A DNA stretch of 64,000 nucleotides from Chamaelirium japonicum (Eukaryota; Streptophyta; Magnoliopsida; Liliales; Melanthiaceae). Below, piece by piece: positions 19,112-64,000 of the stretch. Position 1 is the first letter of the stretch; each line of letters opens with the position of its first letter. Location of the stretch: NCBI GenBank assembly GCA_947650365.1, contig CANTAL010000028.1, forward strand, positions 744,001 through 808,000, read 5' to 3'. Position numbers and translations under genes: made by a program. The notes beneath the pieces were generated by a model. It did no database searches. It was not told the origin of the DNA and saw nothing but the letters and a program-made list of their open reading frames with translations.

Positions 19112-19168
19112 GGATTCCCGGGGAGGAATTCCGGGGCAAACGGCGGTTTCTGCTGCCGTATCTGGGGA

Positions 19169-19630: not shown

Positions 19631-19661
19631 TGCAGATTTCTTACCAAAATTTGCACCCACA

Positions 19662-22600
19662 GATCCATTCTAATTCATTCGTAAGATCCATTCTAATTCA
19701 TTCGTACGATCCATTCTAATTCATTCGTACGATCCATTCTAATTCATTCGCACGAATGTATCCATTCTAGTTCATTCGCACGATCTATTCTAATTCATTC
19801 ATACAATCCATTCTAATTCTTTCACACGATCCATTCTAATTCATTCGTAGGATCCATTCTAATTCATTCGTACGATCCATTCTAATTCATTCGCACGAAT
19901 GTATCCATTCTAATTCATTCATACGATCCATTCTACTTCATTCGTACTATCCATTCTAATTCATTCATACAATTCATTCTAATTCATGCGAATGAATTAG
20001 AATGGATCGGACGAATGAATTAGAATGGATCGTACGAATGAATTAGAATGGATCAAATGAATGAATTAGAATGGATCGTACGAATGAACTAGAATGCATC
20101 GTACGAAAGAATTAGAATGGATCGTGTGAATGAAATAGAATGGATCGTAGGAATGAATTAGAACGGATTGTACGAATGGATTTGAATGGATCGTACGAAT
20201 GCATTCTAATTCCTTCGTACGATCCACTCTAATTCCTTCGTACGAACCATTCTATTTCATTCGTATGATCCATTCTAATTCCTTCGTACGATCCATTCTA
20301 ATTCCTTCATATCCATTCTAATTCACTCATACGATCCATTCTAATCCATTCGTACGATCCATTCTAATTCATTCGCATGAATGTAACCATTCTAATTCAT
20401 TCATTTGATCCATTCTAATTCATTCGTACGATCCATTCTAATTCATTCGTACGATCCATTGTAATTCATTCATACAATCCATTTAGATTCATTCGTATAA
20501 ATGTATCCATTCAAATTCATTCGTACAATCCAGTCTAATTCATTAGCACGATCCATGCTAATTCATTCGTTCGATCAATTCTAATTCATTAGCACGATCC
20601 ATTCTAATTCATTCGTACGATCCATTCTAATTCATTCGTACGATCCATTCTTACTCATTCGTATTATCCATTCTAATTCATTCGTACGATCCATTCTAAT
20701 TCATTCGTACGATCGATTCTAATTCATTCGCACTATCCATTCTAATTCATTCGTATGATCCATTCTAATTTATTCGTTCAAATATATCCATTCTAATTCA
20801 TTCGTACGATCCATTCTAATTCATTCGTACGGTCCATTCTAATTCATTCGCACAATCCATTCTATTTCATTCGTACGATCCATTCGTACTCATTCGTATG
20901 ATCCGTTATGGATACATTCGTGCGAATGAATTAGAATGGATCATACGAATGAGTAAGAATGGATCGTATGAATGAAATAGAATGGATTGTGCGAATGAAT
21001 TAGAATGGATCGTACGAATGAATTAGAATGGATCGTGTGAAAGAATTAGAATGGATCGTGCTAATGAATTAGAATGGATCGTATGAATGGATTAGAATGG
21101 ATACATTCGAGCGAATGAATTAGAATGGATCGTACGAATGAATTAGAATGGATCATACGAATGAGTAAGAATGGATCGTACGAATGAATTAGAATGGATC
21201 GTACGAATGAATTAGAATGGATCGTACGAATAAATTAGAATGGATACATTCGTCTGAATGAATTAGAATGGATCATACGAATGAGTAAGAATGGATCGTA
21301 CAAATGAAATAGAATAGATCGTACGAATGAATTAGAATGGAATATACGAATGAATTAGAATGGATCGTACGAATGAATTAGAATGGATCGTATGAATGAA
21401 TTAGAATGGATCGTACGAATGAATTAGAATGGATCGTGCGAATGAATTCGAATGGATCGTACGATCCATTCTAATTCATTCATACAATCCATTCTAATTT
21501 ATTCGCACGAATGTATCCATTCTAATCCATTCGTACGATCCATTCTAATCCATTCGTACGATCCATTCTAATTCATTCGCACAAATGTATCCATTCTAAT
21601 TCATTCGTACGATCCATTCTAATTCATTCGTACGATCCATTCTAATTCATTCGTATGATCCATTCTAATTCATTCGTATGATCCATTCTAATTAATTCGT
21701 ATGATCCATTCTAATTCATTCGTACGATCCATTCTAATTCATTCGTACAATCCATTCTAATTCATTCGTACGATCCATTCTAATTCATTCGTATGATCGA
21801 TTCTAATTAATTCGTATGATCCATTCTAATTCATTCGTACGATCCATTCTAATTCATTCGTACGATCCATTCTAATTCATTCGCACAATCCATTCTATTT
21901 CATTCGTACGATCCATTCTTACTCATTGGTACGATCCATTCTAATTCAATCGCACGAATGTATCCATTCTAATTCATTCGTACGAATCCTTTCTAATTCA
22001 TTCGTACAATCCATTCTATTTCATTCGTACGATCCATTCTTACTCATTCGTATGATCCATTCTAATTCATTCGCACGAATGTATCCATTCTAAATCATTC
22101 GTACGATCCATTCTAATTCATTCGTACGATCCATTCTAAATCATTCGTACAATCCATTCTATTTCATTCGTACGATCAATTCTAATTCATTCTAATTCAT
22201 TCTATTTCATTCGTACGATCCGTTCTAATTCACTCATACGATCCATTCTAATTCATTCATACGATCCATTCTAATTCATTTGCATGAATATATCCATTCT
22301 AATTCATTCGTACGATCCATTCTAATTCCTTCGTACGATCCATTCTAATTCCTTCGTACGATCCATTCCAATTCCTTCGTACGATCCATTCTATTTCATT
22401 CGTATGATCCATTCTAATTCCTTCATACGATCCATTCTAATTCCTTTGTATCCATTCTAATTCACTCATACGATCCATTCTAATTCATTCATACGATCTA
22501 TTCTAATTCATTCATACAATCCATTCGAATTCTTTCACATGATCCATTCTAATTCATTCGTACGATCCATTCTAATTCATTCGCACAATCCATTCTATTT

Positions 22601-25600
22601 CATTCGTACGATCCATTCTTACACATTGGTACAATCCATTCTAATTCATTCGCACGAATGTATCCATTCTAATTCTTTCACACGATCCATTCTAATTCAT
22701 TCGTACGATCCATTCCAAATCATTCGTGCAATCCATTCTATTTCATTCGTACGATCAATTCTAATTCATTAGAATGGATCGTACGAATTAATTAGAATGG
22801 ATCATATTAATGAATTAGAATGGATCGTACGAATGAATTAGAATGGATCGTACGAACGAATTAGAATGGATCGTACGAAGGAATTAGAATGGATCGTACG
22901 AATGAATTAGAATGGATATATTCGTGCAAATGAATTAGAATGGATCGTATGAATGAATTAGAATGGATCGTACGAATGAATTAGAATGGATATATTCGTG
23001 CAAATGAAGTAGAATGGATCGTATGAATGTATTAGAATGGATCGTATGAGTGAATTAGAATGGATCGTACGAATGAATTAGAATGGATCGTACGAATGAA
23101 TTAGAATGGATCGTGTGAAAGAATTAGAATGGATTGTATGAATGAATTAGAATAGATCGTATGAATGAATTAGAATGGATTGTACGAATGAATTAGAATG
23201 GATCGTACAAATGAATTTGAATGGATACATTTGTGCGAATGAATCTAAATGGATTGTATGAATGAATTACAATGGATCGTACGAATGAATTAGAATGGAT
23301 CGTACGAATGAATTAGAATAGCTCATACGAATGAATTAGAATGAATCGTATGAATGAATTAGAATGGTTACATTCGTGCGAATGAATTAGAATAGATCGT
23401 ACGAATGAATTAGAATGGATCGTATGAATGAATTAGAATGGATCGTACGAATGAATTAGATCGTACGAATAAATTAGAATAGATCGTACGAATGAATTAG
23501 AATGGATCGTACGAATGAATTAGAATGGATCCACCGAATGAGTTAGAATGGATCATACGAATGAATTAGAATGGATTGTACGAATGAATTAGAATGGATT
23601 GTGCGAATGAATTAGAATGGATCGTATGAATGAATAAGAATGGATCGTACGAATGAATTAGAATGGATCGTGTGAATGAATTAGCATGAATCGTACGAAT
23701 GTATTAGAATGGATCTTACGAATGAATTAAAATGAATCGTACGATCCATTCTATTTCAATCGTCCGATCCATTCTAATTCATTCGCATGAATGTATCCAT
23801 TCTAATTCATTCGTACAATCCATTCTATTTCATTCGTACGATCCATTCTAATTCATTCGTATGATCCATTCTAATTCATTCGTACGATCCATTCTAATTC
23901 ATTCGTACGATCCACTCTAATTCATTCGCACGATCCATTCTAATTCATTCATACGATCCATTCTAATTCATTCATACGATCCATTCTAATTCATTCCTAC
24001 AATCCATTCTAATTCATTCGCCCGATCCATTCTAATTCATTCATACGATCCATTCTATTCGAATGGATCATGCGATCCATTCGAATTCATTCGCACGATC
24101 CATTCTAATTCATTCATACGATCCATTCTAATTCATTCATACAATGCATTCTAATTCTTTCGCACGATCCATTCTAATTTATTCATACGATCCATTCTAA
24201 TTCATTCGTACGATCCATTCTAATTCACTCATACGATCCATTCTAATACATTCATACGATCTATTCTAATTCATTTGCACGAATATATCCATTCTAATTC
24301 ATTCGTACGATCCATTCTAATTCCTTCGTACGATCCATTCTAATTCATTCGTACGATCTATTCTAATTCATTCGTACGATCCATTCTAATTCATTCGTAC
24401 GATCCATTCTAATTCCTTCGTACGATCCATTCTAATTCATTCGTACGATCCATTCTAATTCATTCATACAATCCATTCTAATTCTTTCACACGATCCATT
24501 CTAATTCATTCGTACGTTCCATTCGTACTATCCGTTCTAATTCACTCATACGATCCATTCTAATTCATTCATACGATCCATTCTAATTCATTTGCACAAA
24601 GGTATCCATTCTAATTCATTCGTAAGATCCATTCTAATTCATTCACACGAATGTATCCATTCGTACGAATGAATTAGAATAGATTGTACGAATGAATTAG
24701 AATGGATCGTACGAATGAATTAGAATGGATCATACGAAGGAATTAGAATGGGTCGTACGAATGAATTAGAATGGATCGTATGAATGAATTAGAATGGATC
24801 GTACGAATGAATTAGAATAGATCGTATGAATGAATTAGAATGGATCGTACGAAGGAATTAGAATGGATCATGCAAATGAATTAGAATGGATCGTATGAAT
24901 GAATTAGAATGGATCGTACGAATGAACTAGAATGGATACATTCGTGCGAATAAATTAGAATGGATCGTACGAATGAATTAGAATGGATCGTACGAATGAA
25001 TTAGAATGGATCGAACGAATGGATTAGAATGGATCATACGAATGAATTAGAATGGATCATGCGAATGAATTAGAATTGATCGAACGAATGAATTAGAATG
25101 GATATATTTGAGCGAATGAATTAGAATAGATCGTAGGAATGAATTAGAATGGATCATACGAATGAATTAGAATGGATCGTACGAACGAATTAGAATGGGT
25201 CGTACGAACGAATTAGAATCGATCATATGAACGAATTAGAATGGATCGTATGAATGAATTAGAATGGATACATTCGAGCGAATGAATTAGAATGGATCGT
25301 ACGAATGAATTAGAATAGATCATAGGAATGAATTAGAATGGATCGTGCAAATAAATTAGAATGGATACATTCGTGCGAATGAATTAGAATGGATCGTGCG
25401 ATTGAATTAGAATGGATCGTACGAATGAATTAGAATGGATATATTTGAACGAATAAATTAGAATGGATCATACGAATGAATTAGAATGGATCATACGAAT
25501 GAATTAGAATGGATAGTGCGAATGAATTAAAATGGATCGTACGAATGAATTAGAATGGATACATTCGTGCGAATGAATTAGAATGGATCATACGAATGAG

Positions 25601-26702
25601 TAAGAATGGATCGTACGAATAAAATAGAATGGATTATACAAATGAATTAGAATGGATACATTCGTGCGAATGAATTAGAATGGATCGTATGTACGAATGA
25701 ATTAGAATGGATACATTCGTGCGAATGAATTAGAATGGATCGTACGAATGAATTAGAATGGATCATGCGAATTAATTAGAATGGATCGTACGAATGAATT
25801 AGAATGGATCGTACGAATGAACTAGAATGGATACATTCGTTCGAATGAATTAGAATGGATCGTACGAATGAATTAGAATGGATCGTATGAATGAATTAGA
25901 ATGGATCTTACGAATGAATTAGAATGGATCGTACGAATAAATTAGAATGGATCGTATGAATGGTTTAGAATGGATACATTCGTGCGAATGAATTAGAATG
26001 GATCGGACGAATGAATTAGAATGGATCGTACGAATGAATTAGAATGGATCGTGTGAAAGAAATAGAATGGATTGTATGAATGAATTAGAATGGATCGTAC
26101 GAAGGAATTAGACTGGATCATACGAATGAATTAGAATGGATCATACGAATGAATTAGAATAGATCATACGAATGAATTAGAATGGATCGTACGAATGAAT
26201 TAGAATGGATCGTGTGAAAGAATTAGAATGGATCGTACGAATGAATTAGAATGGATCGTGCGAATGAATAAGAATGGATCGTACGAATGAATTAGAATGG
26301 ATCGTGCTAATGAATTAGAATTGATCGAACGAATTCATTGTAATTCATTCATACAATCCATTCTAATTCTTTCACACGATCCATTCTAATTCATTCGTAC
26401 GTTCCATTCTCATTTATTCGTATGATCCATTCTAATTAATTCGTATGATCCATTCTAATTCATTTGTACGATCCATTCTAATTCATTCATACAATCCATT
26501 CTAATTCATTCGTACGATCCATTCTAATTCACTCATACGATCCATTCTAATACATTCATACGATCCATTCTAATTCATTTGCACGATTCATTCGTACGAT
26601 CCATTCTATTTCATTCGTACGATCCATTCTTACTCATTCGTATGATCCATTCTAATTCATTCGGACGAATGTATCCATTCTAATTTATTCGTACGATCCA
26701 TT
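19662..26702. repeat. 23/28-bp satellite with repeated orientation switches
   Basis: Same monomer as 6894-8542, but in alternating blocks. Plus (GATCCATTC): 19662-19989, 20201-20907, 21461-22770, 23741-24666, 26334-26702. Minus (GAATGGATC): 19990-20200, 20908-21460, 22771-23740, 24667-26333. Very short flips also occur, for example near 24057-24075. Borders are accurate to a few bases, because many lie in palindromes. Recurrent variant strings, such as TACAATCC followed by a unit with CTTTCACACGATCC, occur in both orientations. No gene is seen; short open frames such as 22539-22772 are satellite translated. Confidence 0.95.
21442..21479. repeat. Palindromic flip point, minus to plus
   Basis: AATGGATCGTACGATCCATT is a perfect 20-bp palindrome centred on CGTACG between 21460 and 21461. 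The arms continue beyond it with one mismatch (GAATTCG versus CTAATTC). Confidence 0.9.
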
Positions 26703-28831
26703 TGTTAGGATTGATGTGTTCTAAGCTTGTAAAACTTTATGTTTTGGTCTAATAAAGATTGATAGTTATTATTATATGAGATGCATATAGGTGCGTAACA
26801 TAGTTACGTGTTCTTTAGGGAACAGAGAGCCATGGTTATATGGTAGTCCACTGAGTTGAAGACTAAGTGGATTGGTCCCGTATAACCTAAATAAGTTCGC
26901 AGCTATGATCAGGTTGGTCGCCTCATCATGATAAGCTGTTGGCGATGACAGTTCATGGGATGTCTTCACCATGGTCATCACTAGGCACAGTGTCTGTGGC
27001 TGAACGGAACTAACACGGTGTACAGATCAGTGAGCAGACACTGGTACACTAAGCCGTGTTTCTGCTTAGGGTAAAACGGTCCTAAACCCTGAGGAGCCAC
27101 GTCTGATGGACTAACCAGTTGCGTGGTGCTTTGGCGCACCAATGTGTGAGGATCCATATGCAGTGATCCAAAACCACGGTGTACTGGGTTACCCGGCTGG
27201 CGTTGCATTAGCGTGTCACTCCTGCAGGTCATCCACACCCCTGAAGGGAGGTGCGTTCCTTGGTGTGACTTACACTGTACCAAACCCAGGCCTGGTGGTC
27301 ATCAGTTTGACTGTTGACCGGGTTCGATTACTCGACGGGGTAATCAGAGGTACGATGTATAGGTCAACCTGGAAGGAACCAAGTCATATGATCATTCGAG
27401 TCTGACGGTAGTCTTCACCGCTCAAAGTGAATCATGGCATCAAATGGAGGGACAGCAGGTTTACCACAACTAAGCGGAGAGCAGGGGTATGATGGAGAAC
27501 ATAGTAAGTCTGGGTGAATTGGAGTGCAGCCTGCGTCGCACTCTGGGTGGCTACGCAGGTTAACTCGAGCTCAGAGGATCGATGGTACACTCGGGTAGTG
27601 TGTCGATCGAGCTTGAGTTGGAAGCCATGAACCCCGGTCCCTGATGGTTCCACCTTATCAACATTATGTACGGTTCTTGAACCATCTCCTCGGAACACCA
27701 TAAGCATGAGGACGAAAGAAGTATACGCTCCGTGTGTGCTTGGCACTAGAGCACGGTAGATGCGTAACTACATACGAGTACTAAGGGTTGAGCCCGAGGC
27801 TAGTACAGAGTCGTATGTAGTAATCCCTAGCCATAAGTGAACTTCGCTGCATAGGTGCGATGCACCGGGTATGTTGCGAGTTGACTAGTTGACTTTGCTA
27901 GAGGCACCCTCTGGTGGCCTCACTTAATAGTAAGTAACTAGTAGATATCACTTAAGTAATGGCCGCTAGGTATCGCACGCTAGAAATGGTCAAAATGAGG
28001 CGTCGGGGCGTTTTGGTAAAAACCTCACTCTGCCGGACCTCACTGTTGGCCGACCCTAGTGGGGGGACACCTCACTAGGGCCGGCCCTATGATGTAGGGA
28101 TAAGAATCCCTCATCTATAGGGCCGGCCATATAGATAGGGATGGGGCGATAAATCGGTTAAGATCGAGCCCTAAAAAGTGGGAAAACGGATAAATACGCG
28201 GAGAGATAAAAAGGAGATAATGGAGAGATAATCGTGGGGGGTCATTATCCCCTTGGATCCTTATCCAAGGGGGTTGGCCGGCCCTATAAAGGGAGCTATG
28301 GGCGCCGGCCCCATGCACTGGGAAAATCCGAACCCCCTCCTCTCTCATCTCTCTAGTTCTCTCCCTTATCTCTCTCCGTTTCCCGCTTGCTACTTCGCCT
28401 TCCTCGCATGGAGTTCTGAAGAAGGAGAAGGGTCATTCTTCGGAGGCACTCAGAGATCCGAGAGCGACGTTCCGTGCATCGTGTGAGATCGGGTGAACAA
28501 GAAGGCAACATCTCCATTCGTACCGTCGGCATCTTCGCGAACGATCTTCCGTCTCCATCGACAAAGAAGACAATTCTCCGCGGTTAAAAGATACGTACGA
28601 AAGGTATGTGTAATCTAACATGTAGATCTAGCGAGCATTATGATTTGCATCCATGCTAGTTAATCATTATGCTAGATTGCCGTTAGGGGTTTTCGATTCT
28701 CGTGCATACACATGCACACATATGTAGATTAGTTTCTATGAAAATTAAATAGTGTAACGTGCACCATGAACGGTCTTTTGACCGCCAAATCGTTTCCGCT
28801 GCGAGCCTCTGACCAGGATTAACTTCCAACA
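26703..28831 (+). repeat. 5' LTR of the copia element
   Basis: 2,129 bp from TGTTAGGATTG to TTCCAACA, bounded by satellite on the left and the primer site on the right. A TATA box at 28285 puts most of its length in U3. Around 28060-28300 it contains repeated GGCCGGCCCTAT motifs. No gene lies inside; open frames such as 27746-27432 on the minus strand have no recognisable domain. Without a second LTR the ends rest on TG...CA and context. Confidence 0.88.
28285..28290 (+). promoter_or_regulatory. TATA box of the copia LTR
   Basis: TATAAA in GGCCGGCCCTATAAAGGGAG, about 550 bp before the LTR end. Predicted transcript start is roughly 28315-28325. Confidence 0.65.
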
Positions 28832-28833
28832 AT

Positions 28834-28845
28834 TGGTATCAGAGC
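28834..28845 (+). other. Primer-binding site of the copia element
   Basis: TGGTATCAGAGC, two bases after the LTR end. This is the classical plant copia primer site, complementary to the 3' end of initiator methionine tRNA. Confidence 0.95.
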
Positions 28846-30579
28846 CGCATTAGTGGTGTGCGTTTTATATTTTTTCATGAAACGAACATGTGTGCGCATG
28901 ATGAATGCGTGAGATCATCGGGGTTCATACGCTTAGATCATGCATATGTATAGATTGTGCTTGTTCTATTAATCATTCTTGCAGGGCGCCGCTATAAAAA
29001 AATCTAGATCTATGCTTTGTGCTTGCTACCCGGGGTCGGACCCCGAGTTAGCAATTGTATGGATTTGCTTTCTGTGTGTGGATATGTAATTGAGCCTTAG
29101 ATTGGGCGAGTGATGGGGGTTGACCATCCTCGGTTTCCCATGGCCTTTTTCTAGGTGTGTTTTCTTTTCTTTCTAGGAAATTGTGTACGACCGAGCACTT
29201 GCTCGTAGCGTACTAGACTTTTTTGGTTACAGATCGAGAAGAAAGATATGCCAAAGGAATCCACCATCGGGAGCGGAAGCGGAACCCTGGAGGATGAAGA
29301 CGATCCGGCAAAGTGTTCGCGAGCGCGACGAAGGAGCCGGACCGAGGAACCTTGCAAAGAAAGCTAGAGGCCTGCGCTGTGCTAATTAGGTTCAGGGGTC
29401 GGACCCTGAACTTAATTCAGTTTTTTAATGGTTGCTTTCTTTATTAGTTCCTTATGCTTCATATCGAACCCCGATGAGATAATGTTATTATCTGTTATTA
29501 GAGGGATGCCTTTCCCCTCCGGTCCAAGCGACTGTTTGAGGATAGGATCCCGCTAGATGACGCCTATTATTTAGTTGACTTTTGATGTTAGTGGGATCCC
29601 ATCACATATGGTTATGCCACCATTAGGAGAGCACCCGACTAGTCGGGTGTGCCTATTTGGCCAGCATCGAAATCAAAGATGAGATGGAGATCCATTGAAC
29701 ATCAATTTTCAAATCTATAAGCGAGGCGCCATGACTAGTGGGAGTCCTTTCCAGTGAGTCTGACTCTAGGATTAGCTCCAGAGCATTAGCGTGATGACCA
29801 GTTTTGCAGAGCATCGATATTCTCGGAATATGTAATGTGACCCTTGAATGGAGAAATCCACTTGAGGCAGGGACTATGATATTCCGAGAATGATTAATGC
29901 TAGGCGAAAGGTTTGAACGCTAGTGGGAGCATGGTGTGACCAGGGTCTAGTATATAGGAGGTCGCTACCTTTGCATTTGCATAAATTCATACTCGCAAAA
30001 TAACCCTCATATATATATAAGGGATGTAATAGAGGACTTTTAGAGAACCTCTGGCCTTCACGGCTAATCACTTCGTACTCGGGTGGAAGGGCATAACTCA
30101 ACAACCCCCTCGGGTGAGAGCTGTGTTTTTTCTATGCCAAGCTACTTAGTGATCTCCTTCGGGATATGGCGGTTACGGTGCCAAGTGTTCAGGCTTTACT
30201 CACCCTCGTGGGGGCCGTTAGAATTCCCGTGCCGTAATTGCCTAAGCTCGTGGGTAAGCATCCTAAGTACGCGTGAGGTATTCGTTGCGAAGACAACGGT
30301 AATCACGTGGTACTGGCCAAAAGATAACCATGGTCCATCAAAGCCCGTAGTTGGCAGATTTGGATAGGGTCAAGGGAAAGACCCGTGTAAGCGGAAGACC
30401 TGCACACTGCCCCCTCGGACAGGTGTAGCCTACTCCGAGATCTTACATACATGGTTAATTAATCCATAGAGATGGCTTCGCTTGAGGGTAGCGTTGTCAT
30501 ATGGATATAATTAGCTTGTTTTAAAAATCCATAAAATAAGTTTTTCATGCATCTCATATTTTCAGTCTTTTATTTTCAG
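28846..30579 (+). other. Untranslated leader of the copia element
   Basis: 1.7 kb without a recognisable gene between primer site and gag. It contains two related palindromes: CGGGGTCGGACCCCG at about 29030-29044, and CAGGGGTCGGACCCTG at about 29391-29406. An unusually long leader is a feature of several large copia families. Confidence 0.7.
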
Positions 30580-31359
30580 ATGACCAAGTTAGACCCCCTG
30601 TCCGCTATCCTAAATGACCACAAACTTACCGGCCCCAACTATGAGGACTGGAAGCGCAACCTGTACCTAGTCTTAAGGATAGGTAAACACATGTCAGCCC
30701 TGAATGACCCTGAGCCAGATTTGCCAGGACCCAATGCCACAGAGGCACAGTTAAAGGCTTTCAATGACTGGAAGGAATCTAATGAGATATGTAAATGCTA
30801 TATTATAGCATCCTTGCAAACAACTCTGCAGAAGCAAGTCGAGGAGATGCCCGACGCTTCTGATATGATGTTGTATCTGAAGGAGATGTTTGAAGGTCAC
30901 AATCGCGTTACGCGATACCTTACCATCAAGAAACTCGTCGGCACTAAGATGTCCAATGGGACGCTGGTTCGGGAACACATGATGAAAATGTTTGGGTTCC
31001 AGAACGAACTAGCTACCATGGACATTGTGCTAGAAGGCGAGGTGATGACAGACATCTTCCTCTCGTCACTGTCTGGAGCCTTTGAAGGCTTTGTCACCAA
31101 CTTTAATTTAAACAAGTTGGCTATGACAAATGCAGAGCTTCTGGGAGCTCTCCAGGCAGCGGAGGATGGCTTCAAGCAGAAGGGCGAAGCACTTCACGTG
31201 CAACGCAGATCCTTCAAGAAGCCTGGTAAACCTCAAGGCAAGAAACATAAAAAGAAACCTAAGTCATTGCCTGTGCAGGACTCTGCTGGGGCCTCTGGGT
31301 CTGGAGAATCGAAGAAACCGGGCACGAAGTGCTTCCGGTGTGGCCAGAAGGGTCATTAG
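30580..31359 (+). pseudogene. Copia Gag, stop in zinc knuckle
   Basis: I chose the ATG at 30580 (MTKLDPLSAILNDHKL) over the in-frame ATG at 30547, because the copia Gag domain begins there; the 11 residues between are hydrophobic and unlike Gag. The 259 residues match the copia-type Gag polyprotein: LTGPNYEDWKRNLYLVL near residues 17-33, the helical core to about 200, then a lysine-rich linker (KKHKKKPKSL) and the zinc knuckle CFRCGQKGH at the end. The knuckle's last cysteine (KKDC) follows a TAG at 31357-31359, where a Trp codon is common in this motif, a one-base change. The frame then continues open into protease. Gag would form the particle and bind element RNA. Confidence 0.9.
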
Positions 31360-32124: not shown

Positions 32125-32158
32125 AGGCCGGGCTTCTGAAACAGATCCTACGGAGATC
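32105..32158 (+). repeat. 54-bp duplicated filler at the copia/satellite junction
   Basis: TAGGATCCATAGGTTGGTAA onward repeats 31920-31974 almost exactly (one base missing in CTGGAAAC to CTGAAAC, and two substitutions). Satellite resumes immediately after GGAGATC. The pattern is that of a templated insertion during end joining. Confidence 0.92.
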
Positions 32159-49960: not shown

Positions 49961-52900
49961 ATGAATTAGAATGGATCGTACGAATGAATTAGAATGGATA
50001 TATTCGTGCAAATGAATTAGAATGGATCGTATGAATGTATTAGAATGGATCGTATGAGTGAATTAGAATGGATCGTACGAATGAATTAGAATGGATCGTA
50101 TGAATGAATTAGAATGGATACATTCGTGTGAATGAATTAGAATGGATCGTATGAATGAATTAGAATAGATTTTGTGAATGAATTAGAACTGATCGTACGA
50201 ATGAATTAGAATGCATACATTCGTGCGAATGAATTAGAATGGATTGTATGAATGAATTAGAATGGATCCTATGAATGAATTAGAATGGATCGTACGAATG
50301 AATTAGAATGGATACATTCGTGCGAATGAATTAGAATTGACCGTACGAATGAATTAGAATGGATCGTGCGAATGAATTAGAATGGATCGTACGAATGAAT
50401 TAGAATGGATACATTCGTGCGAATGAATTAGAATGGATACATTCGTGCGAAAGAATTAGAATAGATCGTATGAATGAATTAGAATGGATCCTATGAATGA
50501 ATTAGAATGGATCGTGCGAATGAATTAGAATGGATCGTACGAATGAATTAGAATGGATCGTGCTAATGAATTAGAATTGATCGAACGCATGAATTAGCAT
50601 GGATCGTGCTAATGAATTAGAATGGAACGTACGAATCAATTAGAACGGATCGTGTGAAAGAATTAGAATGGATTGTATGAATGAATTAGAATGAATTCGT
50701 ACGATCCATTCGAATTCATTCGCACGATCCATTCTAATTCATTCATATGATCCATTCTAATTCATTCATACAATCCATTCTAATTCTTTCACACGATCCA
50801 TTCTAATTCATTCGTAGGATCCATTCTAATTCATTCGTACAATCTATTCTATTTCATTCGTACGATCCATTCTTACTCATTCGTATGATCCATTCTAATT
50901 CATTCGGACGAATGTATCCATTCTAATTTATTCGTATGATCCAATCTAATTCATTCGTACGATCCATTCTAATTCATTCGTACGATCCATTCTTACTCAT
51001 TCGTATGATCCATTCTAATTCATTCGTACGATCCATTCTAATTCATTCGTACGATCCATTCTAATTCATTCGCACAATCTATTCTAATTCATTCGTACGA
51101 TCCATTCTAATTCATTCGTACGATCGTACGAATGAATTAGAATGGATCATACGGAATGAATTAGAATGGATTGTATGAGTGAATTAGAATGGATACATTC
51201 GTGGGAATGAATTAGAATGGATCATACGAATGAGTAAGAATGGATCGTACGAATGAAATAGAATGGATTTGATCGTACGAATGAATTAGAATGGATCATA
51301 CGGAATGAATTAGAATGGATTGTATGAGTGAATTAGAATGGATACATTCGTGCGAATGAATTAGAATGGATCATACGAATGAGTAAGAATGGATCGTACG
51401 AATGAAATAGAATGTATTGTACGAATGAATTAGAATGGATTGTACAAATGAATTAGAATGGATCGTACGAATGAATTAGAATAGATCATACGAATGAGTA
51501 AGAATGGATCGTACAAATGAAATAGAATGGATTGTACGAATGAATTAGAATGGATCGTACGAATGAATTAGAATGGATCGTGTGAAAGAATTAGAATGCA
51601 TTGTATGAATGATTTAGAATGGATCGTATGAATGAATTAGAATGGATCGTGCGAATGAATTCGAATGGACCGCATCATCCATTCGAATAGAATGGATCGT
51701 ATGAATGAATTAGAATGGATCGGGCGAATGAATTAGAATGGATTGTAGGAATGAATTAGAATGGATCGTATGAATGAATTAGAATGGATCGTATGAATGA
51801 ATTAGAATGGATCGTGCGAATGAATTAGAATGGATCATACGAATGAATAAGAATGGATTGTACGAATGAATTAGAATGGATCATACAAATGAATTAGAAT
51901 GGATCATACGAATGAGTAAGAATGGATCGTACGAATGAAATAGAATGGATTGTACGAATGAATTAGAATGGATACATTCATACGAATGAATTAGAATGGA
52001 TTGGATGATTGAATTAGAATGGATCGTACGATTCATTCAAATTCATTCGTACGATCCATTCTAATACAATCGTACGATTCATGCTAATTCATTCGCACAA
52101 TCCATTCTAATTCATTCGTACGATCCATTCTTATTCATTCATACGATCCATTCTAATTCATTCGCACAATCCATTCTAATTCATTCGTACAATCCATTCT
52201 AATTCATTCGTATGATCCATTCTAACTCATTCGGTGGATCCATTCTAATTCATTCGTACGATCCATTCTAATTCATTCCCACGATCCATTCTAATTTATT
52301 TGTACGATCCATTCTAATTCATTCGTACGATCTATTCTAATTCATTCGCACGAATGTAACCATTCTAATTCATTCATACGATTCATTCTAATTCATTCGT
52401 ATGAGCTATTCTAATTCATTCGTACGATCCATTCTAATTCATTCGTACGATCCATTTTAATTCATTCATACAATCCATTTAGATTCATTCGCACAAATGT
52501 ATCCATTCAAATTCATTCGTACGATCCAGTCTAATTCATTCGTACGATCCATTCTAATTCCTTCGTACGATCCATTCTAATTCATTCGTACGATCTATTC
52601 TAATTAATTCGTACGATCCATTCTAATTCATTCGTACGATCCATTCTAATTCCTTCGTATGATCCATTCTAACTCATTCGTATGATCCATTCTAATTCAT
52701 TCGTACAATCTATTCTAATTCATTCGTAAGAATGGATACATTCGTGTGAATGAATTAGAATGGATCGTACGAATGAGTAAGAATGGATCGTACGAATGAA
52801 ATAGAATGGATTGCACGAATGAATTAGAATGGATCGTACGAATGAATTAGAATGGATTGTGTGAAAGAATTAGAATGGATTGTATGAATGAATTAGAATG

Positions 52901-53030
52901 GATCGTACGAATGAATTAGAATGGATAGTACGAAGGAATTAGAATGGATCGTACGAATGAATTAGAATGGATCGTACAAATGAATTTGAATAGATCGTAC
53001 GAATGAATTAGAATGGATCGTACGAAGGAA
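49961..53030. repeat. Higher-order satellite unit, copy 2
   Basis: Same landmarks as copy 1 at 50166, 50697, 51124, 52026 and 52726. The offset is 2,916 bp for the early ones and 3,065 bp for the late ones. The 149-bp difference is a local duplication of the GATCATACGGAATGAATT segment (51142 and about 51291). A partial third copy follows to about 53270 (TAGATTTTGTG at 53231). Confidence 0.85.
51099..51148. repeat. Perfect 50-bp palindrome at a flip point (third copy)
   Basis: Centre between 51123 and 51124. The base order outside the arms (CATACGGAATG) matches the copy at 48207 except for one change, consistent with duplication in the higher-order unit. Confidence 0.95.
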
Positions 53031-56000
53031 TTAGAATGGATCGTACGAATGAATTAGAATGGATATATTCGAGCAAATGAATTAGAATGGATCGTATGAA
53101 TGTATTAGAATGGATCGTATGAGTGAATTAGAATGGATCGTACGAATGAATTAGAATGGATCGTATGAATGAATTAGAATGGATACATTCTTGTGAATGA
53201 ATTAGAATGGATCGTATGAATGAATTAGAATAGATTTTGTGAATGAATTAGAACTGATCGTACGAATGAATTATAATGGATACATTCGTCCGAATGAATT
53301 AGAATGGATTGTATGAATGAATTAGAATGGATCATACGAATGAACTAGAATGGATACATTCGTGCGAATGAATTACAATGGATCGTACGAATGAATTAGA
53401 ATGGATCGTACGAATGAATTAGAATGAATCTTATGAATGAATTAGAATGGATCGTACGAATGAATTAGAATGGATCGTACGAATGAATTAGAATGGATAC
53501 ATTCGTGCGAATGAATTAGAATGGATCGGACGAATGAATTAGAATGGATCGTACGAATGAATTAGAATGGATCGTACGAATGAATTAGAATGGATCGTAT
53601 GAATAAATTAGAATGGATACATTCGTCCGAATGAATTAGAATGGATCATATGAATGAGTAAGAATGGATCGTACGAATGAAATTGAATAGATTGTACGAA
53701 TGAATTAGAATGATCCTACGAATGAATTAGAATGGATTGTGTGAAAGAATTAGAATGAATTGTATGAATGAATTAGAATGGATCGTATGAATGAATTAGA
53801 ATGGATCGTGCGAATGAATTCGAATGGATCGTACGAATTCATTCTAATTCATTCATACAATCCATTCTAATTCTTTCACACGATCCATTCTAATTCATTC
53901 GTACGTTCCATTCTAATTCATTAGCACGATCCATGCTAATTCATTCGTTCGATCAATTCTAATTCATTAGCACGATCCATTCTAATTCATTCGTACGATC
54001 CATTCTAATTCACTCGCACGATCCATTCTAATTCATTCGTAGGATCCATTCTAATTCATTCATACAATCCATTCTAATTCATTCGCACGAATGTATCCAT
54101 TCTAATTCATTCATACGATCAGTTCTAATTCATTCACAAAATCTATTCTAATTCATTCATACGATCCATTCTAATTCATTCACACGAATGTATCCATTCT
54201 AATTCATTTATACGATCCATTCTAATTCATTCGTACGATCCATTCTAATTCACTCATACGATCCATTCTAATACATTCATACGATCCATTCTAATTCATT
54301 TGCACAAATATATCCATTCTAATTCATTCGTACGATCCATTCTAATTCCTTCGTACGATCCATTCTAATTCATTCGTACGATCTATTCTATTTCATTCGT
54401 ACGATCCATTCTTACTCATTCGTACGATCCATTCTAATTCATTCGTCCGATCTATTCTAATTCATTCGCACGAATGTATCCATTCTAATTCATTCGTTCG
54501 ATCAATTCTAATTCGTTAGCACGATCCATTCTAATTCATTCGTACGATCCATTCTAATTCATTCGCACGATCCATTCTAATTCATTCATAGGATCCATTC
54601 TAATTCATTCATACAATCTATTCTAATTCTTTCGCACGAATGTATCCATTCTAATTCATTCGCACGAATGTATCCTTTCTAATTCATTCGTACGATCCAT
54701 TCTAATTCATTCGTACGATCCATTCTAATTCATTCGTACGATCCATTCAAATTCATTCGTACGATCCATTCTAATTCATTCGTACGATCCATTCTAATTC
54801 ATTCATACAATCTATTCTAATTCATTCAAACAATCCATTCTAATTCTTTCACACGATCCATTCTAATTCATTCGTATGATCCATTCTAATTCATTCGCAC
54901 AATCCATTTTATTTCATTCGTACGATCCATTCTTACTCATTCGTATGATCCAGTCAAATTCATTCGCACGAATGTATCCATAATGGATCATACGAATGAG
55001 TAAGAATGGATCGTATGAATGAAATAGAATGGACGGTGCGAATGAATTAGAATGGATTGTACGATTGAATTAGAATGGATCATAAGAATGAGTAAGAATG
55101 GATCGTATGAATGAATTAGAATGGATCGTATGAATGAATTAGAATGGATCATACGAATGAGTAAGAATGGATACATTCGTGCGAATGAATTAGAATGGAT
55201 CAGACGAATGAATTAGAATGGATCATTCTAATTCATTCGTACGATCCATTCTAATTCATTCGTACGATCCATTCTTACTCATTCGTATGATCCATTCTAA
55301 TTCATTCGTACGATCCATTCTAATTCATTCGTACGATTGATTCTAATTCATTCGCACTATCCATTCTAATTCATTCGTATGATCCATTCTTATTTATTTG
55401 TTCAAATATATCCATTCTAATTCATTCGTACGATCCATTCTAATTCATTCGCACGATCCATTCTAATTCATTCGCACGAATATATCCATTCTAATTCATT
55501 TGCACGATCCATTCTAATTCATTCCTATGATCTATTCTAATTCATTCGTACGATCCATTCTAATTCATTCTAATTCATTCGTACTATCCATTCTAATTCC
55601 TTCGTACGATCCATTCTAATTCATTCGTACGATCTATTCTAATTCATTTGTACGATCCATTCTAATTCATTCGTACGATCCATTCTAATTCCTTCGTACG
55701 ATCCATTCTAATTCATTCGTACGATCCATTCTAATTCATTCGTACAATCTATTCTAATTCATTCGTACGAATGGATACATTCGTGTGAATGAATTAGAAT
55801 GGATCGTACGAATGAGTAAGAATGGATCGTACGAATGAAATAGAATGGATTGCACGAATGAATTAGAATGGATCGTACGAATGAATTAGAATGGATCGTA
55901 CGAAGGAATTAGAGTGGATCGTACAAATGACTTAGAATGGATCGTACGAATGAATTAGAATAGATCGTATGAATGAATTAGAATGGATCGTTCGAAGGAA

Positions 56001-59000
56001 TTAGAATGGATCGTACGAATGAATTAGAATGGATCATGCTAATGAATTGGAATTGATCGAACGAATGAATTAGCATGGATCGTGCTAATGAATTAGAATG
56101 GAACGTACGACTGACTTAGAATGGATCGTGTGAAAGAATTAGAATGGATTGTATGAATTAATTAAAATGAATTCGTACGATCCATTCGAATTCATTCGCA
56201 CGATCCAATCTAATTCATTCATACGATCCATTCTAATTCATTCATACAATCCATTCTAATTCTTTCACACGATCCATTCTAATTCATTCGTAGGATCCAT
56301 TCTAATTCATTCGTACAATCTATTCTATTTCATTCGTACGATCCATTCTTACTCATTCGTATGATCCATTCTAATTCATTCGGACGAATGTATCCATTCT
56401 AATTTATTCGTACGATCCATTCTAATTCATTCGTACGATCCATTCTAATTCATTCGTACGATCTATTCTAATTCATTCGTACGATCCATTCTAATTTCAT
56501 TCGTACGATCCATTCTAATTCATTCGCTCGAATGTATCCATTCTAATCCATTCGTACGATCCATTCTAATCCATTCGTACGATCCATTCTAATTCATTCG
56601 CATGAATGTAACCATTATAATTCATTCATTTGATCCATTCTAATTCATTCGTACGATCCATTCTAATTCATTCGTCCGATCCATTCTAATTCATTCGCAC
56701 GAATGTATCCATTCTAATTCATTCGTACGATCCATTCTAATTCATTCATACGATCCATTCTAATTCATTCGTAAGATCCATTCTAATTCATTCGTACGAT
56801 CCATTCTAATTCATTCGTACGATCCATTCTAATTCATTCGCACGAATGTATCCATTCTAGTTCATTCGTACGATCCATTCTAATTCATTTGTACGATCCA
56901 TTCTAATTCATTCGCACGATCCATTCTAATTCATTCGTACGATCAATTCTAATTCATTCGCACGAATGTATCCAGTCTAACTCATTCGTACGATCCTGAA
57001 TTTGAATGGATCGTACGAATGAGTTAGAATGGATACCTTTGTGCATATGAATTAGAATGGATCGTACGAATGAATTAGAATGGATCATATTAATGAATTA
57101 GAATGGATCGTACGAATGAATTAGAATGGATCGTACGAATGAATTAGAATGGATCTTACGAATGGATTAGAATGGATACATTCGTGCGAATGAATTAGAA
57201 TGGATCGGACGAATGAATTAGAATGGATCGTACGAATGAATTAGAATGGATCAAATGAATGAATTAGAATGGTTACATTCATGCGAATGAATTAGAATGG
57301 ATCGTACGAATGGATTAGAATGGATCGTACGAATGGATTAGAATGGATGCATTCGAGCGAATGAATTAGAATGAATCGTACGAATGAAATTAGAATGGAT
57401 CGTACGAATGAATTAGAATAGATCGTACGAATGAATTAGAATGGATCGTACGAATGAATTAGAATGGATCGTGTGAAAGAATTAGAATGGATCGTACGAA
57501 TGAATTAGAATGGATCGTGCGAATGAATTAGAATGGATCGTACGAATGAATTAGAATGGATCGTGCTAATGAATTAGAATTGATCGAACGAATGAATTAG
57601 CATGGATCGTGCTAATGAATTAGAATGGAACGTACGAATGAATTAGAATGGATCATGTGAATGAATTAGAATGGATTGTTTGAATGAATTAAAATGAATT
57701 CGTACGATCCATTCGAATTCATTCGCACGATCCATTCTAATTCATTCATACGATCCATTCTAATTCATTCATACAACCCATTCTAATTCTTTCACACGAT
57801 CCATTCTAATTCATTCGTAGGATCAATTCTAATTCATTCGGACAATCTATTCTATTTCATTCGTACGATCTATTCTTACTCATTCGTATGATCCATTCTA
57901 ATTCATTCGGACGAATGTATCCATTCTAATTTATTTGTACGATCCATTCTAATTCATTCGTACGATCCATTCTAATTCATTCGTACGATCCATTCTTACT
58001 CATTCGTATGATCCATTCTTATTCATTCGTACGATCCATTTTAATTCATTCGTACGATCGATTCTAATTCATTCGCACTATCCATTCTAATTCAATCGTA
58101 CGATCCATTCTAATTCATTCGTATGATCCATTCTAATTTATTCGTTCAAATATATCCATTCTAATTCATTCGCACAAATGTATCCATTCTAATTCATTCG
58201 TACGATCCATTCTAATTTATTCGCACGATCCATTCTAATTCATTCGTACGATCCATTCTAATTCATTCGTACGATCCATTCTAATTCATTCGTAGGATCC
58301 ATTCTAATTAATTCGTATTATCCATTCTAATTCATTCGTACGATCCATTCTAATTCATTCGCACGAATGTATCCATTCTAATTAATTCGTACGATCCATT
58401 CTAATTCATTCGTATGATTTATTCTTATTCATTCGCACGATCCAGTCTAATTGATTCGCAATGAAATAGAATGGATTGTGCGAATGAATTAGAATGGATC
58501 ATACGAATTAATTAGAATGGATCATACGAATGAATTAGAATTGATCGTACGAATGAATTAGAATGGATCGTACGAATGAACTAGAATGGATCGTACGAAT
58601 GAACTTGAATGGATACATTCGTGCGAATGAATTAGAATGGATCGTACGAATGAATTAGAATGGATCGTACGAATGAATTAGAATGGATCTTACGAATGAA
58701 TTAGAATGGATCGTACGAATGAATTAGAATGGATCGTACGAATGAATTAGAATGGATACATTCGTGCGAATGAATTAGAATGGATCGTGCGAATGAATTA
58801 GAATGGATATATTTGAACGAATAAATTAGAATGGATCGTACGAATGAATTAGAATGGATATATTTGAACGAATAAATTAGAATGGATCATACGAATGAAT
58901 TAGAATGGATCGTACGAATGAATTAGAATGGATTGTGCGAATGAATTAGAATCGATCGTACGAATGAATTAGAATGGATCGTACGAATGAATTAGAATGG

Positions 59001-62000
59001 ATCATACGAATGAGTAAGAATGGATCGTACGATTGAATTAGAATGGATCGTACGAATGAATTAGAATGGATCGTACGAATAAATTAGAATGGATCGTACA
59101 AATTAACTAGAATGGATACATTCGTGCGAATGAATTAGAATGGATCGTACGAATGAATTAGAATCGATCGTACGAATGAATTAGAATGGATCGTATGAAT
59201 GAATTAGAATGGATCATACGAATGAGTAAGAATGGATCGTACGATTGAATTAGAATGGATTGTGCGAATGAATTAGAATGGATCGTACGAATGAATTAGA
59301 ATGGATCGTACAAATGAACTAGAATGGATACATTCGTGCGAATGAATTAGAATGGATCGTACGAATGAATTAGAATGGATCGTACGAATGAATTAGAATG
59401 GATCTTACGAATGAATTAGAATGGATCGTACGAATGAATTAGAATGGATCGTATGAATTAATTAGAATGGATACATTCGTGCGAATGAATTAGAATGGAT
59501 CGGACGAATGAATTAGAATGGATCGTACGAATGAATTAGAATGGTTCGTACGAATGAATTAGAATGGATCGTACGAATAAATTAGAATGGATACATTCGT
59601 CCGAATGAATTAGAATGGATCATACGAATGAGTAAGAATGGATCGTACGAATGAAATAGAAAAGATTGTACGAATGAATTAGAATGGATCCTACGAATGA
59701 ATTAGAATGGATCGTGTGAAAGAATTAGAATGGATTGTATGAATGAATTAGAATGGATCGTATGAATGAATTAGAATGGATCGTGCGAATGAATTCGAAT
59801 GGATCGTACGAATTTATTCTAATTCATTCATACAATCCATTCTAATTCTTTCACACGATCCATTCTAATTCATTCGTACGTTCCATTCTAATTCATTAGC
59901 ATTATCCATGCTAATTCATTCGTTCGATCAATTCTAATTCATTAGCACGATCCATTCTAATTCATTCGTATGATCCATTCTAATTCATTCGCACGATCCA
60001 TTCTAATTCATTCATAGGATCCATTCTAATTCATTCATACAATCCATTCTAATTCATTCGCACGAATGTATCCATTCTAATTCATTCGTACGATCTGTTC
60101 TAATTCATTCACAAAATCTATTCTAATTCATTCATACGATCCATTCTAATTCATTCACACGAATGTATCCATTCTAATTCATACATACGATCCATTCTAA
60201 TTCATTCGTACGATCCATTCTAATTCACTCATACGATCCATTCTAATACATTCATACAATCCATTCTAATTCATTTGCACGAATATATCCATTCTAATTC
60301 ATTCGTACGATCCATTCTAATTCCTTCGTACGATCCATTCTAATTCATTCGTACGATCAATTCTATTTCATTCGTACGATCCATTCTTACTCATTCGTAC
60401 GATCAATTCTAATTCATTCGTCCAATCCATTCTAATTCATTCGCACGAATGTAACCTTTCTAATTCATTCGTTCGATCAATTTTAATTCATTAGCACGAT
60501 CCATTCTAATTCATTCGTACGATCCTTTCTAATTCATTCGTATGATCCATTCTAATTAATTCGTATGATCCATTCTAATTCATTCGTACGATCCATTCTA
60601 ATTCATTCATACAATCTATTCTAATTCATTCGTACGATCCATTCTAATTCACTGATACGACCCATTCTAATACATTCATACGATCCATTCTAATTCATTT
60701 GCACGAATATATCCATTCTAATTCATTCATACGATCCATTCTAATTCATTCATACGATCCATTCTAATTCATTCATACGATCTATTCTAATTCACTCATA
60801 CGATCCATTCTAATACATTCATACGATCCATTCTAATTCATTTGCACGAATATATCCATTCTAATTCATTCGTACGAACCATTCTAATTCCTTCGTACGA
60901 TCCATTCTAATTCATTCGTACGATCTATTCTATTTCATTCGTACGATCCATTCTTACTCATTCGTACGATCCATTCTAATTCATTCGTCCGATCCATTCT
61001 AATTCATTCGCACGAATGTATCCAATCTAATTCATTTGCACGATCCATTCTAATTCATTCCTATGATCTATTCTAATTCATTCGAACGATCCATTCTAAT
61101 TCATTCTAATTCATTTGTACGATCCATTCTACGATCCATTCTAATTCATTCATACGATCCATTCTAATTCATATGCACAAAGGTATCCATTCTAATCCAT
61201 TCGTAGGATCCATTCTAATCCATTCGTACGATACATTCTAATTCATTCGTACGATCCATTCTAATTTATTCGCACGAATGTATCCATTCTAATTTATTCG
61301 TACGATCCATTCTAATTCATTCGCACAATCTATTCTAATTCAATCATACGATCCATTCTAATTCATTCGCACGAATGTATCCATTCTAATTCATTCATAC
61401 GATCCATTCTACTTCATTCGTACTATCCGTTCTAATATTCCACTCATACGATCCATTCTAATTCATTCATACGATCCATTCTAATTCATTTGCACAAAGG
61501 TATCCATTCTAATTCATTCGTACGATCCATTCGAATTCATTCGCACGATCCATTCTAATTCATTCGTATGATCCATTCTAATTCATTCGTACGATCCATT
61601 CTAATTCATTCGCACGATCCATTCTAATTCATTCGTACAATCTATTCTATTTCATTCGTACGATCCATTCTTACTCATTCGTATGATCCATTCTAATTCA
61701 TTCGGACGAATGTATCCATTCTAATTTATTCGTACAATCCATTCTAATTCATTCGTACGATCCATTCTAATTCATTCGTACGATCCATACTAATTCATTC
61801 GTCCGATCCATTCTAATTCATTCACTCGATCCATTCTAATTCATTCGTACGATCCATTCTAATTCATTCATACAATCCATTCTAATTCATTCGTATGATC
61901 CATTCTAATTCACTCATACGATCCATTCTAATACATTCATATGATCCATTCTAATTCATTTGCACGAATATATCCATTCTAATTCATTCGTACGATCCAT

Positions 62001-64000
62001 TCTAATTCCTTCGGACGATCCATTCTAATTCATTCGTACGATCTATTCTAATTCATTCGTACGATCCATTCTAATTCATTCGTACGATCCATTCTAATTC
62101 CTTCGTACGATCCATTCTAATTCATTCGTACGATCCATTCTAATTCATTCGTACAATCTATTCGAATTCATTCGTACGAATGGATACATTCGTGTGAATG
62201 AATTAGAATGGATCGTACGAATGAGTAAGAATGGATCGTACGAATGAAATAGAATGGATTGCACGAATGAATTAGAATGGATCGTACGAATGAATTAGAA
62301 TGGATCGTGTGAAAGAATTAGAATGGATTGTATGAATGAATTAGAATGGATCGTACGAAGGAATTAGAATGGATCGTACGAATGAATTAGAATAGATCGT
62401 ACGAATGAATTAGAATAGATCGTACGAATGAATTAGAATGGATCGTACGAATGAATTAGAATGGATCGTGTGAAAAAATTAGAATGGATCGTACGAATGA
62501 ATTAGAATGGATCGTGCGAATGAATTAGAATAGATTGCGCGAATGAATTAGAATGGATCGTGCGAATGAATTAGAATGGATCGTATGAATGAATTAGAAT
62601 GGATCGTACGAATGAATTAGAATAGATTGCGCGAATGAATTAGAATGGATCGTACGAATGAATTAGAATGGATCGTACGAATAAATTAGAATGGATCGTA
62701 CGAATAAATTAGAATGAATTAGAATGGATCGTACGAATAAATTAGAATGGATACATTTGTCCGAATGAATTAGAATGGATCATACGAATGAGTAAGAATG
62801 GATCGTATGAATGAAATAGAATAGATTGTATGAATGAATTAGAATGGATTCGTACGAATGAATTAGAATGGATACATTCGTGCGAATGAATTAGAATGGA
62901 TCATACCAATGAGTAAGAATGGATCGTACGAATGAAATAGAATGGATTGTGCGAATGAATTAGAATGCATCGTACGAATGAATTAGAATGGATCGTGTGA
63001 AAGAATTAGAATGGATTGTATGAATGAATTAGAATAGATCGTATGAATGAATTAGAATGGATCGCACGAATGTATCCATTCTAATTCATTCGTACGAATC
63101 CATTCTAATTCATTCGTACAATCCATTCTATTTCATTCGTACGATCCATTCTTACTCATTCGTATGATCCATTCTAATTCATTCGCACGAATGTATCCAT
63201 TCTAAATCATTCGTACGATCCATTCTAATTCATTCGTACGATCCATTCTAAATCATTCGTACAATCCATTCTATTTCATTCGTACGATCAATTCTAATTC
63301 ATTAGCACGATCCATTCTAATTCATTCGTACGATCAATTCAAATTCATTCACACGATCCATTCTAATTCATTCGTACAATCCATTCTATTTCATTCGTAT
63401 GATCCATTCTTACTCATTCGTATGATCCATTCTAATTCATTCGCACGAATGTATCCATTCTAATCCATTCGTACGATCCATTCTAATCCATTCGTACGAT
63501 CCATTCTAATTCATTCGCATGAATGTAACCATTCTAATTCATTCATTTGATCCATTCTAATTCATTCGTACGATCCATTCTAATTCATTCATCCGATCCA
63601 TTCTAATTCATTCTCACGAATGTATCCATTCTAATTCATTCGTACGATCAGTTCTAATTCATTCACAAAATCTATTCTAATTCATTCATACGATCCATTC
63701 TAATTTATTCACACGAATGTATCCATTCTAATTCATTCATACGATCCATTCTAATTCATTCGTACGATCCATTCTAATTCACTCATACGATCCATTCTAA
63801 TACATTCATACGATCCATTCTAAATCATTTGCATGAATATATCCATTCTAATTCATTCGTACGATCCATTCTAATTCATTCGTACGATCTATTCTATTTC
63901 ATTCGTACGATCCATTCTTACTCATTCGTACGATCCATTCTAATTCATTCGTCCGATCCATTCTAATTCATTCGCACGAATGTATCCATTCTAATTCATT

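What the first reader, a model, noticed from the sequence alone, without database searches (positions are those of the whole stretch)
19662..64000. Satellite that flips orientation about 45 times at its own palindromic core
A simple 23/28-bp satellite normally runs head to tail for long distances, as it does at 6894-8542. Here blocks of 20 bp to 4.3 kb alternate in direction. Most flips are seamless: they occur at CGTACG, GATC, GAATTC or TTCGTACGAA, which are palindromic parts of the monomer, so no filler is needed. The monomer thus offers inverted microhomology every 23 bp. I infer template switching or fold-back recombination during replication as the cause; assembly error is the alternative.
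Basis: partly seen in the sequence, partly recalled or inferred. Interest (0 to 1): 0.75.

Follow-up and report, generated by a model that had tools for sequence, protein, structure and literature searches.

The report
Two-way plant holocentromere satellite array
This looks like the known 23/28-base centromere satellite of the holocentric lily relative Chionographis japonica, whose repeats are already known to run in alternating directions; the added detail is that the direction changes often sit on a short palindrome in the repeat and that many are copies of one another.

Summary
In detail: 42 flips between 45 blocks (21 to 4,278 bp) in 38,246 satellite bases of 19662-64000. The satellite fits Chio1/Chio2 (23 and 28 bp) of the holocentric plant Chionographis japonica, whose frequently alternating orientation and 8-bp dyad are already published.

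After collapsing copies, 6 of 23 distinct seams carry the full 8-bp overlap on the monomer's palindrome TCGTACGA (one in a decayed form), against 17 of 2000 random joins; 15 of 23 share 2 bp or more, against 386 of 2000. Eight of 23 share only 0-1 bp. Between 12 (strict) and 19 of 42 flips look like inherited copies; one 98.65%-identical tandem duplication carries four flips per copy. Arms beside a flip are no more alike than arms of different flips, so young fold-back is not seen; old fold-back cannot be excluded. Recurrent seams in diverged copies, without mirror arms, argue against assembly error. The sister species' satellite has the same 9-mer yet one orientation, so the palindrome alone does not suffice.

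Best reading: rare microhomology-guided joins, then copying and orientation-blind shuffling.

The parts
19662..26702 (.). Chio1/Chio2-type array, part 1: 9 blocks of alternating orientation, 8 flips
   Evidence: segmentation
32157..44128 (.). Chio1/Chio2-type array, part 2: 14 blocks, 13 flips, including the longest single-orientation block 39851-44128
44768..64000 (.). Chio1/Chio2-type array, part 3: 22 blocks, 21 flips, runs to the window end
6895..8545 (+). short array of the same satellite in one orientation; shares long exact runs with plus and minus blocks of the main array at similar rates
26703..32156 (+). Copia-type retroelement sequence (gag, Pol_BBD, pre-integrase domains in the two ORFs scanned) interrupting the array
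44129..44767 (.). 639-bp non-satellite insert between two minus blocks
47022..50125 (.). copy 1 of a tandem segmental duplication carrying flips 47777, 48205, 48958, 49663
   Evidence: 98.65% identity over 3104 aligned bases with one 149-bp indel
49938..53190 (.). copy 2 of the same duplication carrying flips 50693, 51121, 52023, 52728
36230..36251 (.). example of junction family A (minus to plus, seam GAATTC-like); other members at 26332, 47777, 50693, 53836, 56169, 57696, 59815
   Evidence: core of five (36229, 47777, 50693, 53836, 59815) strict, the other three placed by the shared unusual seam
55761..55772 (.). example of junction family C (plus to minus); other members at 24660, 39850, 49663, 52728, 62177
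   Evidence: core of four strict, 24660 and 39850 placed by shared seam and flanks
48205..48209 (.). junction family B (plus to minus) with 4-bp GATC overlap; also at 38584 and 51121
21456..21464 (.). flip seam with the full 8-bp TCGTACGA overlap; others at 23736, 36865, 37049, 45394, 48958, 52023, and a decayed form at 35899
37050..37070 (+). 21-bp mini-block bounded by two flips, copied at 45395-45415

Best explanation
The array is probably part of a holocentromere unit built of Chio1 (23 bp) and Chio2 (28 bp) satellite. Now and then two oppositely directed stretches are joined, often by annealing at short inverted microhomology and most strikingly at the 8-bp palindrome TCGTACGA that occurs once per monomer (break repair or replication template switching; the pathway is inferred). 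Once present, flips are inherited: segments carrying them are duplicated, or converted onto other places, in either direction. Exchange between plus and minus blocks spreads sequence variants regardless of orientation and distance. Shown here: flips in the sequence, seam microhomology, copied flips, orientation-blind sharing, no young mirror arms among the flips tested. Inferred: the repair pathway, the shuffling mechanism, the centromere role of this stretch.
For: 42 flips. On 23 distinct seams: 8-bp overlap 6/23 against 17/2000 random joins (binomial p 3e-8) and overlap of 2 bp or more 15/23 against 386/2000 (p 2e-6); significant at all three tolerances tried, weakest for 2 bp or more at tolerance 3.0 (17/23 against 668/2000, p 8e-5). 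With the strict count of 30 junctions: 6/30 (p 2e-7) and 20/30 (p 2e-8). Copied flips: 98.65%-identical tandem duplication with four flips per copy; junction pairs above the 99.9% null threshold are 11 of 210 and 7 of 210 against 0.21 expected each. Exact shared runs of 60 bp or more occur at 1.7-3.5 (direct, all bins) and 2.0-4.5 (inverted, bins from 100 bp) per million opportunities up to 45 kb; the inverted bins under 100 bp had none, with few opportunities. Plus and minus monomer pools differ by at most 0.032 in base frequency at any position. Identity as Chio: 23- and 28-bp monomers, 5-bp difference, TTCGTACGA, alternating orientation.
Against: 8 of 23 distinct seams share only 0-1 bp, so much of the joining needs no palindrome. 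Seams on one axis may share old ancestry: 21456 and 23734 look by eye like precursors of family A, which would lower the independent 8-bp seams to about 5 of 21 (still p 8e-7 by the same null). D1 and D2 are two ends of one event. The flat sharing pattern may record old mixing rather than continuing exchange, since the separate array at 6895-8545 shows it too. The sister genus has the same 9-mer but stable orientation. All seams come from one 44-kb stretch.
Confidence: 0.62

Rival explanations
1. Fold-back replication: the nascent strand folds at TCGTACGA pairs in neighbouring monomers (8-bp stem, 15-nt loop) and copies itself backwards, making a mirror-image arm at each flip; the arms have since diverged.
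For: Seams sit on the palindrome. One of three pure-block strands folded shows 8-bp-stem, 15-nt-loop hairpins in its best structure (21600-21737) and the other two show similar stems. Family B (38584) has the most similar arms in the 120-bp test (0.975; 2.9% of cross pairs reach it), and that test gave self above cross at p 0.043. One 131-bp inverted match (53882-54012 with 57524-57654) is centred on flip 55768, but with arms about 1.8 kb out on either side; random shifts give as many in 26% of trials.
Against: With 200-, 300- and 400-bp arms self equals cross (p 0.50, 0.64, 0.82) and 0 of 33, 0 of 29 and 0 of 20 flips exceed the 95th percentile of cross pairs. Of 75 inverted exact matches of 100 bp or more inside the array, only one has arms under 500 bp apart, and its axis is 54 bp from flip 56996.
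Confidence: 0.2
2. Plain inversions by homologous recombination or end joining between array segments, with the palindrome playing no special part.
For: 8 of 23 seams share 0-1 bp; sharing is blind to orientation and distance; the sister satellite with the same 9-mer is reported as consistently oriented.
Against: Excess of 8-bp and of 2-bp-or-more overlaps over random joins of the same sequences.
Confidence: 0.13
3. Assembly or read artefact (chimeric or hairpin reads, wrong joins among repeats).
For: A short repetitive array is hard to assemble, and no reads could be examined.
Against: The same seams recur in separate copies that have diverged from each other. Hairpin-read artefacts would give near-identical arms, which none of the flips tested shows. 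The published assembly, if this is it, is hifiasm on HiFi reads, and its authors report mixed orientation.
Confidence: 0.05

Closest known systems
Chio1/Chio2 holocentromere satellite of Chionographis japonica (Kuo et al. 2023, PMC10264360)
   Same: 23- and 28-bp monomers differing by 5 bp, the 9-mer TTCGTACGA (named in PMC12722358), dyad symmetries, intermingled monomers, mixed forward and reverse blocks
   Different: The sections and passages I read do not analyse flip junctions, shared seams or arm similarity; CENH3 binding of this stretch was not tested here
Chama satellite of Chamaelirium luteum (PMC12722358)
   Same: Same 9-mer TTCGTACGA in a centromere satellite of the sister genus
   Different: 60-bp monomer; [quoted passage not shown]
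Origin-dependent inverted-repeat amplification (ODIRA) in yeast (PMC10766183)
   Same: Inverted junctions fall at short inverted repeats of 2-14 bp, longer repeats being used more often
   Different: ODIRA makes inverted triplications at interrupted repeats, mostly 40-80 bp in span or spacing; mirror-image arms are not seen here and no origin is known

Membership tests
Chio1/Chio2 satellite | 23-bp and 28-bp monomers differing by a 5-bp insertion/deletion | tested here: met
   23-mer consensus and array periods of 97, 120 and 143 bp (23s plus one 28); 136 insertion-bearing sites beside 1,327 ATCCATTC sites
Chio1/Chio2 satellite | one substitution between the two monomers besides the 5-bp difference | not tested
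   28-bp copies often read GCACG where 23-bp copies read GTACG, but this was not counted
Chio1/Chio2 satellite | contains TTCGTACGA | tested here: met
   consensus contains it; the 9-mer is named in PMC12722358
Chio1/Chio2 satellite | mixture of forward and reverse blocks | tested here: met
   42 flips; reported in PMC10264360 section 8
Chio1/Chio2 satellite | full published consensus (Fig. 3b) | not testable with these tools
   figure letters are not held; a search for monomer pieces in paper text found 0 papers
Chio1/Chio2 satellite | bound by CENH3 | not testable with these tools
   needs ChIP data mapped to this stretch
Fold-back inverted duplication | arms beside the junction are copies of each other | tested here: not met
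   (37 flips at 200 bp; 33, 29, 20 flips with offset allowed); power is good only up to about 2-3% divergence per arm
ODIRA | junctions at short inverted repeats | tested here: inconclusive
   15 of 23 distinct seams share 2 bp or more against 19% expected, 8 do not
ODIRA | replication origin within the amplified inverted segment | not testable with these tools
   no origin data

The most novel reading that the evidence does not exclude
The conserved 8-9-bp palindrome of this holocentromere satellite is a genuine recombination or template-switch site that keeps creating orientation flips, so that plus and minus blocks form one freely mixing pool; the same property could help the satellite spread to its hundred or so centromere units.
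Probability: 0.25. Interest if true: 0.65.

Novelty: already known. Interest (0 to 1): 0.4.

Why it matters
The alternating orientation and the dyad are in print, but the authors leave open whether the 8-bp sequence matters for centromere identity and how the units spread (PMC10264360 sections 8 and 14; PMC12722358 section 12). Base-level flip seams give a direct, countable test: if flips genome-wide concentrate on TCGTACGA, the motif acts in rearrangement. It would also show that a centromere array can evolve without regard to orientation, unlike the array reported in the sister genus.

Tried and rejected
A first k-mer method for seam overlap was dropped because stray k-mers inflated overlaps, in random joins too; the profile method replaced it. 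Nearest unflipped relatives of each arm (21 of the 22 junctions listed were scanned, 37049 skipped) gave 0.91-1.0 except two arms (0.79, 0.69), but random interior windows give a mean of 0.969, so nothing is concluded. A near-mirror structure at 35980-36538 around flip 36229 was within the range of cross pairs (9% reach it). Two 2,362-bp blocks (45416-47777, 59816-62177) are only 90% alike, so their equal length is probably chance. Whether adjacent flips pair up as simple in-place inversion would predict was looked at by eye only and not pursued. No RNA family reached its gathering score and no tRNA was found in the window. The window's own genome could not be searched.

Full report
Observation. 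A two-orientation Viterbi segmentation with the 23-mer GATCCATTCTAATTCATTCGTAC (consensus) finds 45 satellite blocks and 42 direct flips in 19662-64000. Plus blocks hold 16,352 bases and minus blocks 21,894; lengths run from 21 to 4,278 bp with mean 850. That is 1.10 flips per kb of satellite. Non-satellite DNA interrupts at 26703-32156 (Copia-type gag and Pol_BBD domains) and 44129-44767.

Identity. Full-text search led to Kuo et al. 2023 (PMC10264360; outline with abstract, sections 8, 14, 19, 23, 29 and passages read). [quoted passage not shown] A 2025 paper (PMC12722358; passages and section 12 read) says the Chio monomer contains TTCGTACGA and speaks of 'the frequently alternating orientation' of Chio arrays. 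The window's monomer contains TTCGTACGA and has a 28-bp form with a 5-bp insertion. The published consensus itself is in a figure and could not be compared, so the species (or a close relative) is a strong inference. NCBI lists the species as Chamaelirium japonicum. The gross observation is therefore already known.

Seams. For each flip a position-specific profile of both orientations gave the interval in which the junction could lie, that is, the microhomology. Raw overlaps over 42 flips: 8 bp in 8, 5 in 1, 4 in 6, 3 in 9, 2 in 6, 1 in 4, 0 in 8. A one- or two-base filler was preferred in 9 of 42, eight of them family A and the ninth 34347. After collapsing copies to 23 distinct junctions, overlap was 8 bp in 6 (five TCGTACGA and one decayed TTATACGA), against 17 of 2000 random joins of real array pieces (binomial p 3e-8); 2 bp or more in 15 of 23, against 386 of 2000 (p 2e-6). 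At tolerance 0.5 the counts were 5/23 and 14/23, at 3.0 6/23 and 17/23, with p between 9e-8 and 8e-5. Eight of 23 had 0-1 bp. The two flips of the 21-bp mini-block (D1, D2) count as two but are one event.

Collapsing combined a strict test with judgement by eye. Strictly (above the 99.9% quantile of synthetic junctions that share the TCGTACGA seam) there are 30 groups of 42, 15 of each direction; on those 30 the tests give 6/30 (p 2e-7) and 20/30 (p 2e-8). Seven further merges rest on a shared unusual seam, with flank support of differing strength: 56169 and 57696 into A (null fraction 0.003 each), 26332 into A (0.062), 39850 into C (0.004), 24660 into C (0.043), 20907 with 54981 (0.025), and 33006 with 56996 (0.49, so that test gives no support there; they share the seam and a left flank whose match ends 34 bp before both flips).

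Inheritance. The best-supported case is 47022-50125 against 49938-53190: 98.65% identity over 3,104 aligned bases with one 149-bp indel, four flips in each copy. Families A (8 flips), C (6), B (3), D1, D2, E, F and G (2 each) account for 27 of 42 flips; 15 are single. So 19 flips are extra copies by this grouping, 12 by the strict one. Copies exist in both directions. By eye, 21456 has the perfect TCGTACGA seam with a flank like family A's, and 23734 differs from A by about one base at the seam, so A may descend from such a seam; if so the independent 8-bp seams number about 5 of 21 (p 8e-7). One search gives these two no support as members of A (best partners 0.894 and 0.938, both with 52023).

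Fold-back. Mirror copying predicts similar arms. Without offset, 37 flips with 200-bp arms average 0.829, against 0.840 for 648 cross pairs. Allowing offset, 120-bp arms of 38 flips gave 0.926 against 0.920 (p 0.043), a test with no power at 2% divergence against its 99% quantile, while 200, 300 and 400 bp gave p 0.50, 0.64 and 0.82, and 0 of 33, 0 of 29 and 0 of 20 flips were above the 95th percentile. Simulated fold-backs at that percentile are found in 98-100% of cases at 1% divergence per arm, 47, 87 and 100% at 2%, and 7% or less at 5%. Of 75 inverted exact matches of 100 bp or more within the array, one is centred within 2 bp of a flip (55768, arms about 1.8 kb out on each side); random shifts give at least one in 26% of trials. 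Young fold-backs are excluded for the flips tested, old ones are not. Single strands of three pure blocks fold at z -1.3 to -2.7, and windows over three flips at z -10.5 to -12.3, as opposite blocks must.

Mixing. Exact shared runs of 60 bp or more, per million possible pairs, are 1.7-3.5 direct and, from 100 bp on, 2.0-4.5 inverted, without a clear decline to 45 kb. Runs of 100 bp or more show a direct excess at 1.6-3.2 kb, where the tandem duplication falls. Monomer base frequencies of plus and minus pools differ by at most 0.032. The separate array at 6895-8545 fits the same pool (3.93 direct, 3.68 inverted), so this may be old mixing.

Artefact. Hairpin or chimeric reads give near-identical arms and unrelated seams; here seams recur in diverged copies and no tested flip has such arms. 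Reads were not available, so this is strong but indirect. Section 23 of the 2023 paper says the assembly is hifiasm on HiFi reads.

Mechanism. Microhomology-guided joining of oppositely oriented monomers, favoured at TCGTACGA, followed by duplication or conversion and shuffling, fits best. Yeast work (PMC10766183, abstract and section 20 read) shows inverted junctions at 2-14-bp inverted repeats with longer ones preferred; but there the product is an inverted triplication. The sister genus' Chama satellite has the same 9-mer and is reported as consistently oriented, so something besides the palindrome (monomer length, replication stress, array history: guesses) matters. The authors themselves suggest that the 9-mer may form hairpins that cause breaks and ectopic repair; the seam count here bears on that idea.

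In print or not. The listed rows of searches (the lists of 28 and 37 were cut at 20 of 97 and 25 of 153) show no title on Chio flip junctions; supplements could not be read, and most subscription journals are not held. PMC7004042 (passages) was not relevant to flips. Other papers in those lists were seen as listings only.

Noticed in passing
9771-13997 and 15427-19653: Direct duplication of non-satellite DNA, 99.1% identical over 4,227 bases, ending beside the main array; an inverted third piece at 8600-9759 matches 13015-14175 at 98.9%, near the small array.
   Followed up: partly
26703-32156: Copia-type sequence inside the array that starts with TGTTAGG and shows gag, Pol_BBD and pre-integrase domains in the two ORFs scanned, then abuts satellite directly; it looks truncated.
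   Followed up: partly
44129-44767: 639-bp non-satellite insert between two minus blocks; the 166-aa ORF 44125-44625 has no Pfam match at the 0.001 cut-off.
   Followed up: partly
973-5622: Retroelement ORFs on the minus strand: reverse transcriptase and RNase H matches (973-3018) and Retrotrans_gag (4190-4795); 'Gypsy-like' is my recalled label.
   Followed up: no
14148-15358: A 14-18-bp GATCGGTCAAA minisatellite, mostly one direction: 44 ATCGGTCA against 6 TGACCGAT sites in 14100-15400.
   Followed up: partly
6895-8545 and 19662-64000: The most variable monomer positions are 21 (T to C 23%) and CpG sites (position 20 G to A 20%, 23 C to T 12%, 1 G to A 11%), as methylated CpG decay would give, while most of ATCCATTC is 98-99% constant.
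   Followed up: no
53836-57696: Two family-A junctions in opposite direction (53836, 57696) lie almost symmetrically about flip 55768, with a 131-bp exact inverted match centred on it; random shifts give such centring in 26% of trials.
   Followed up: partly
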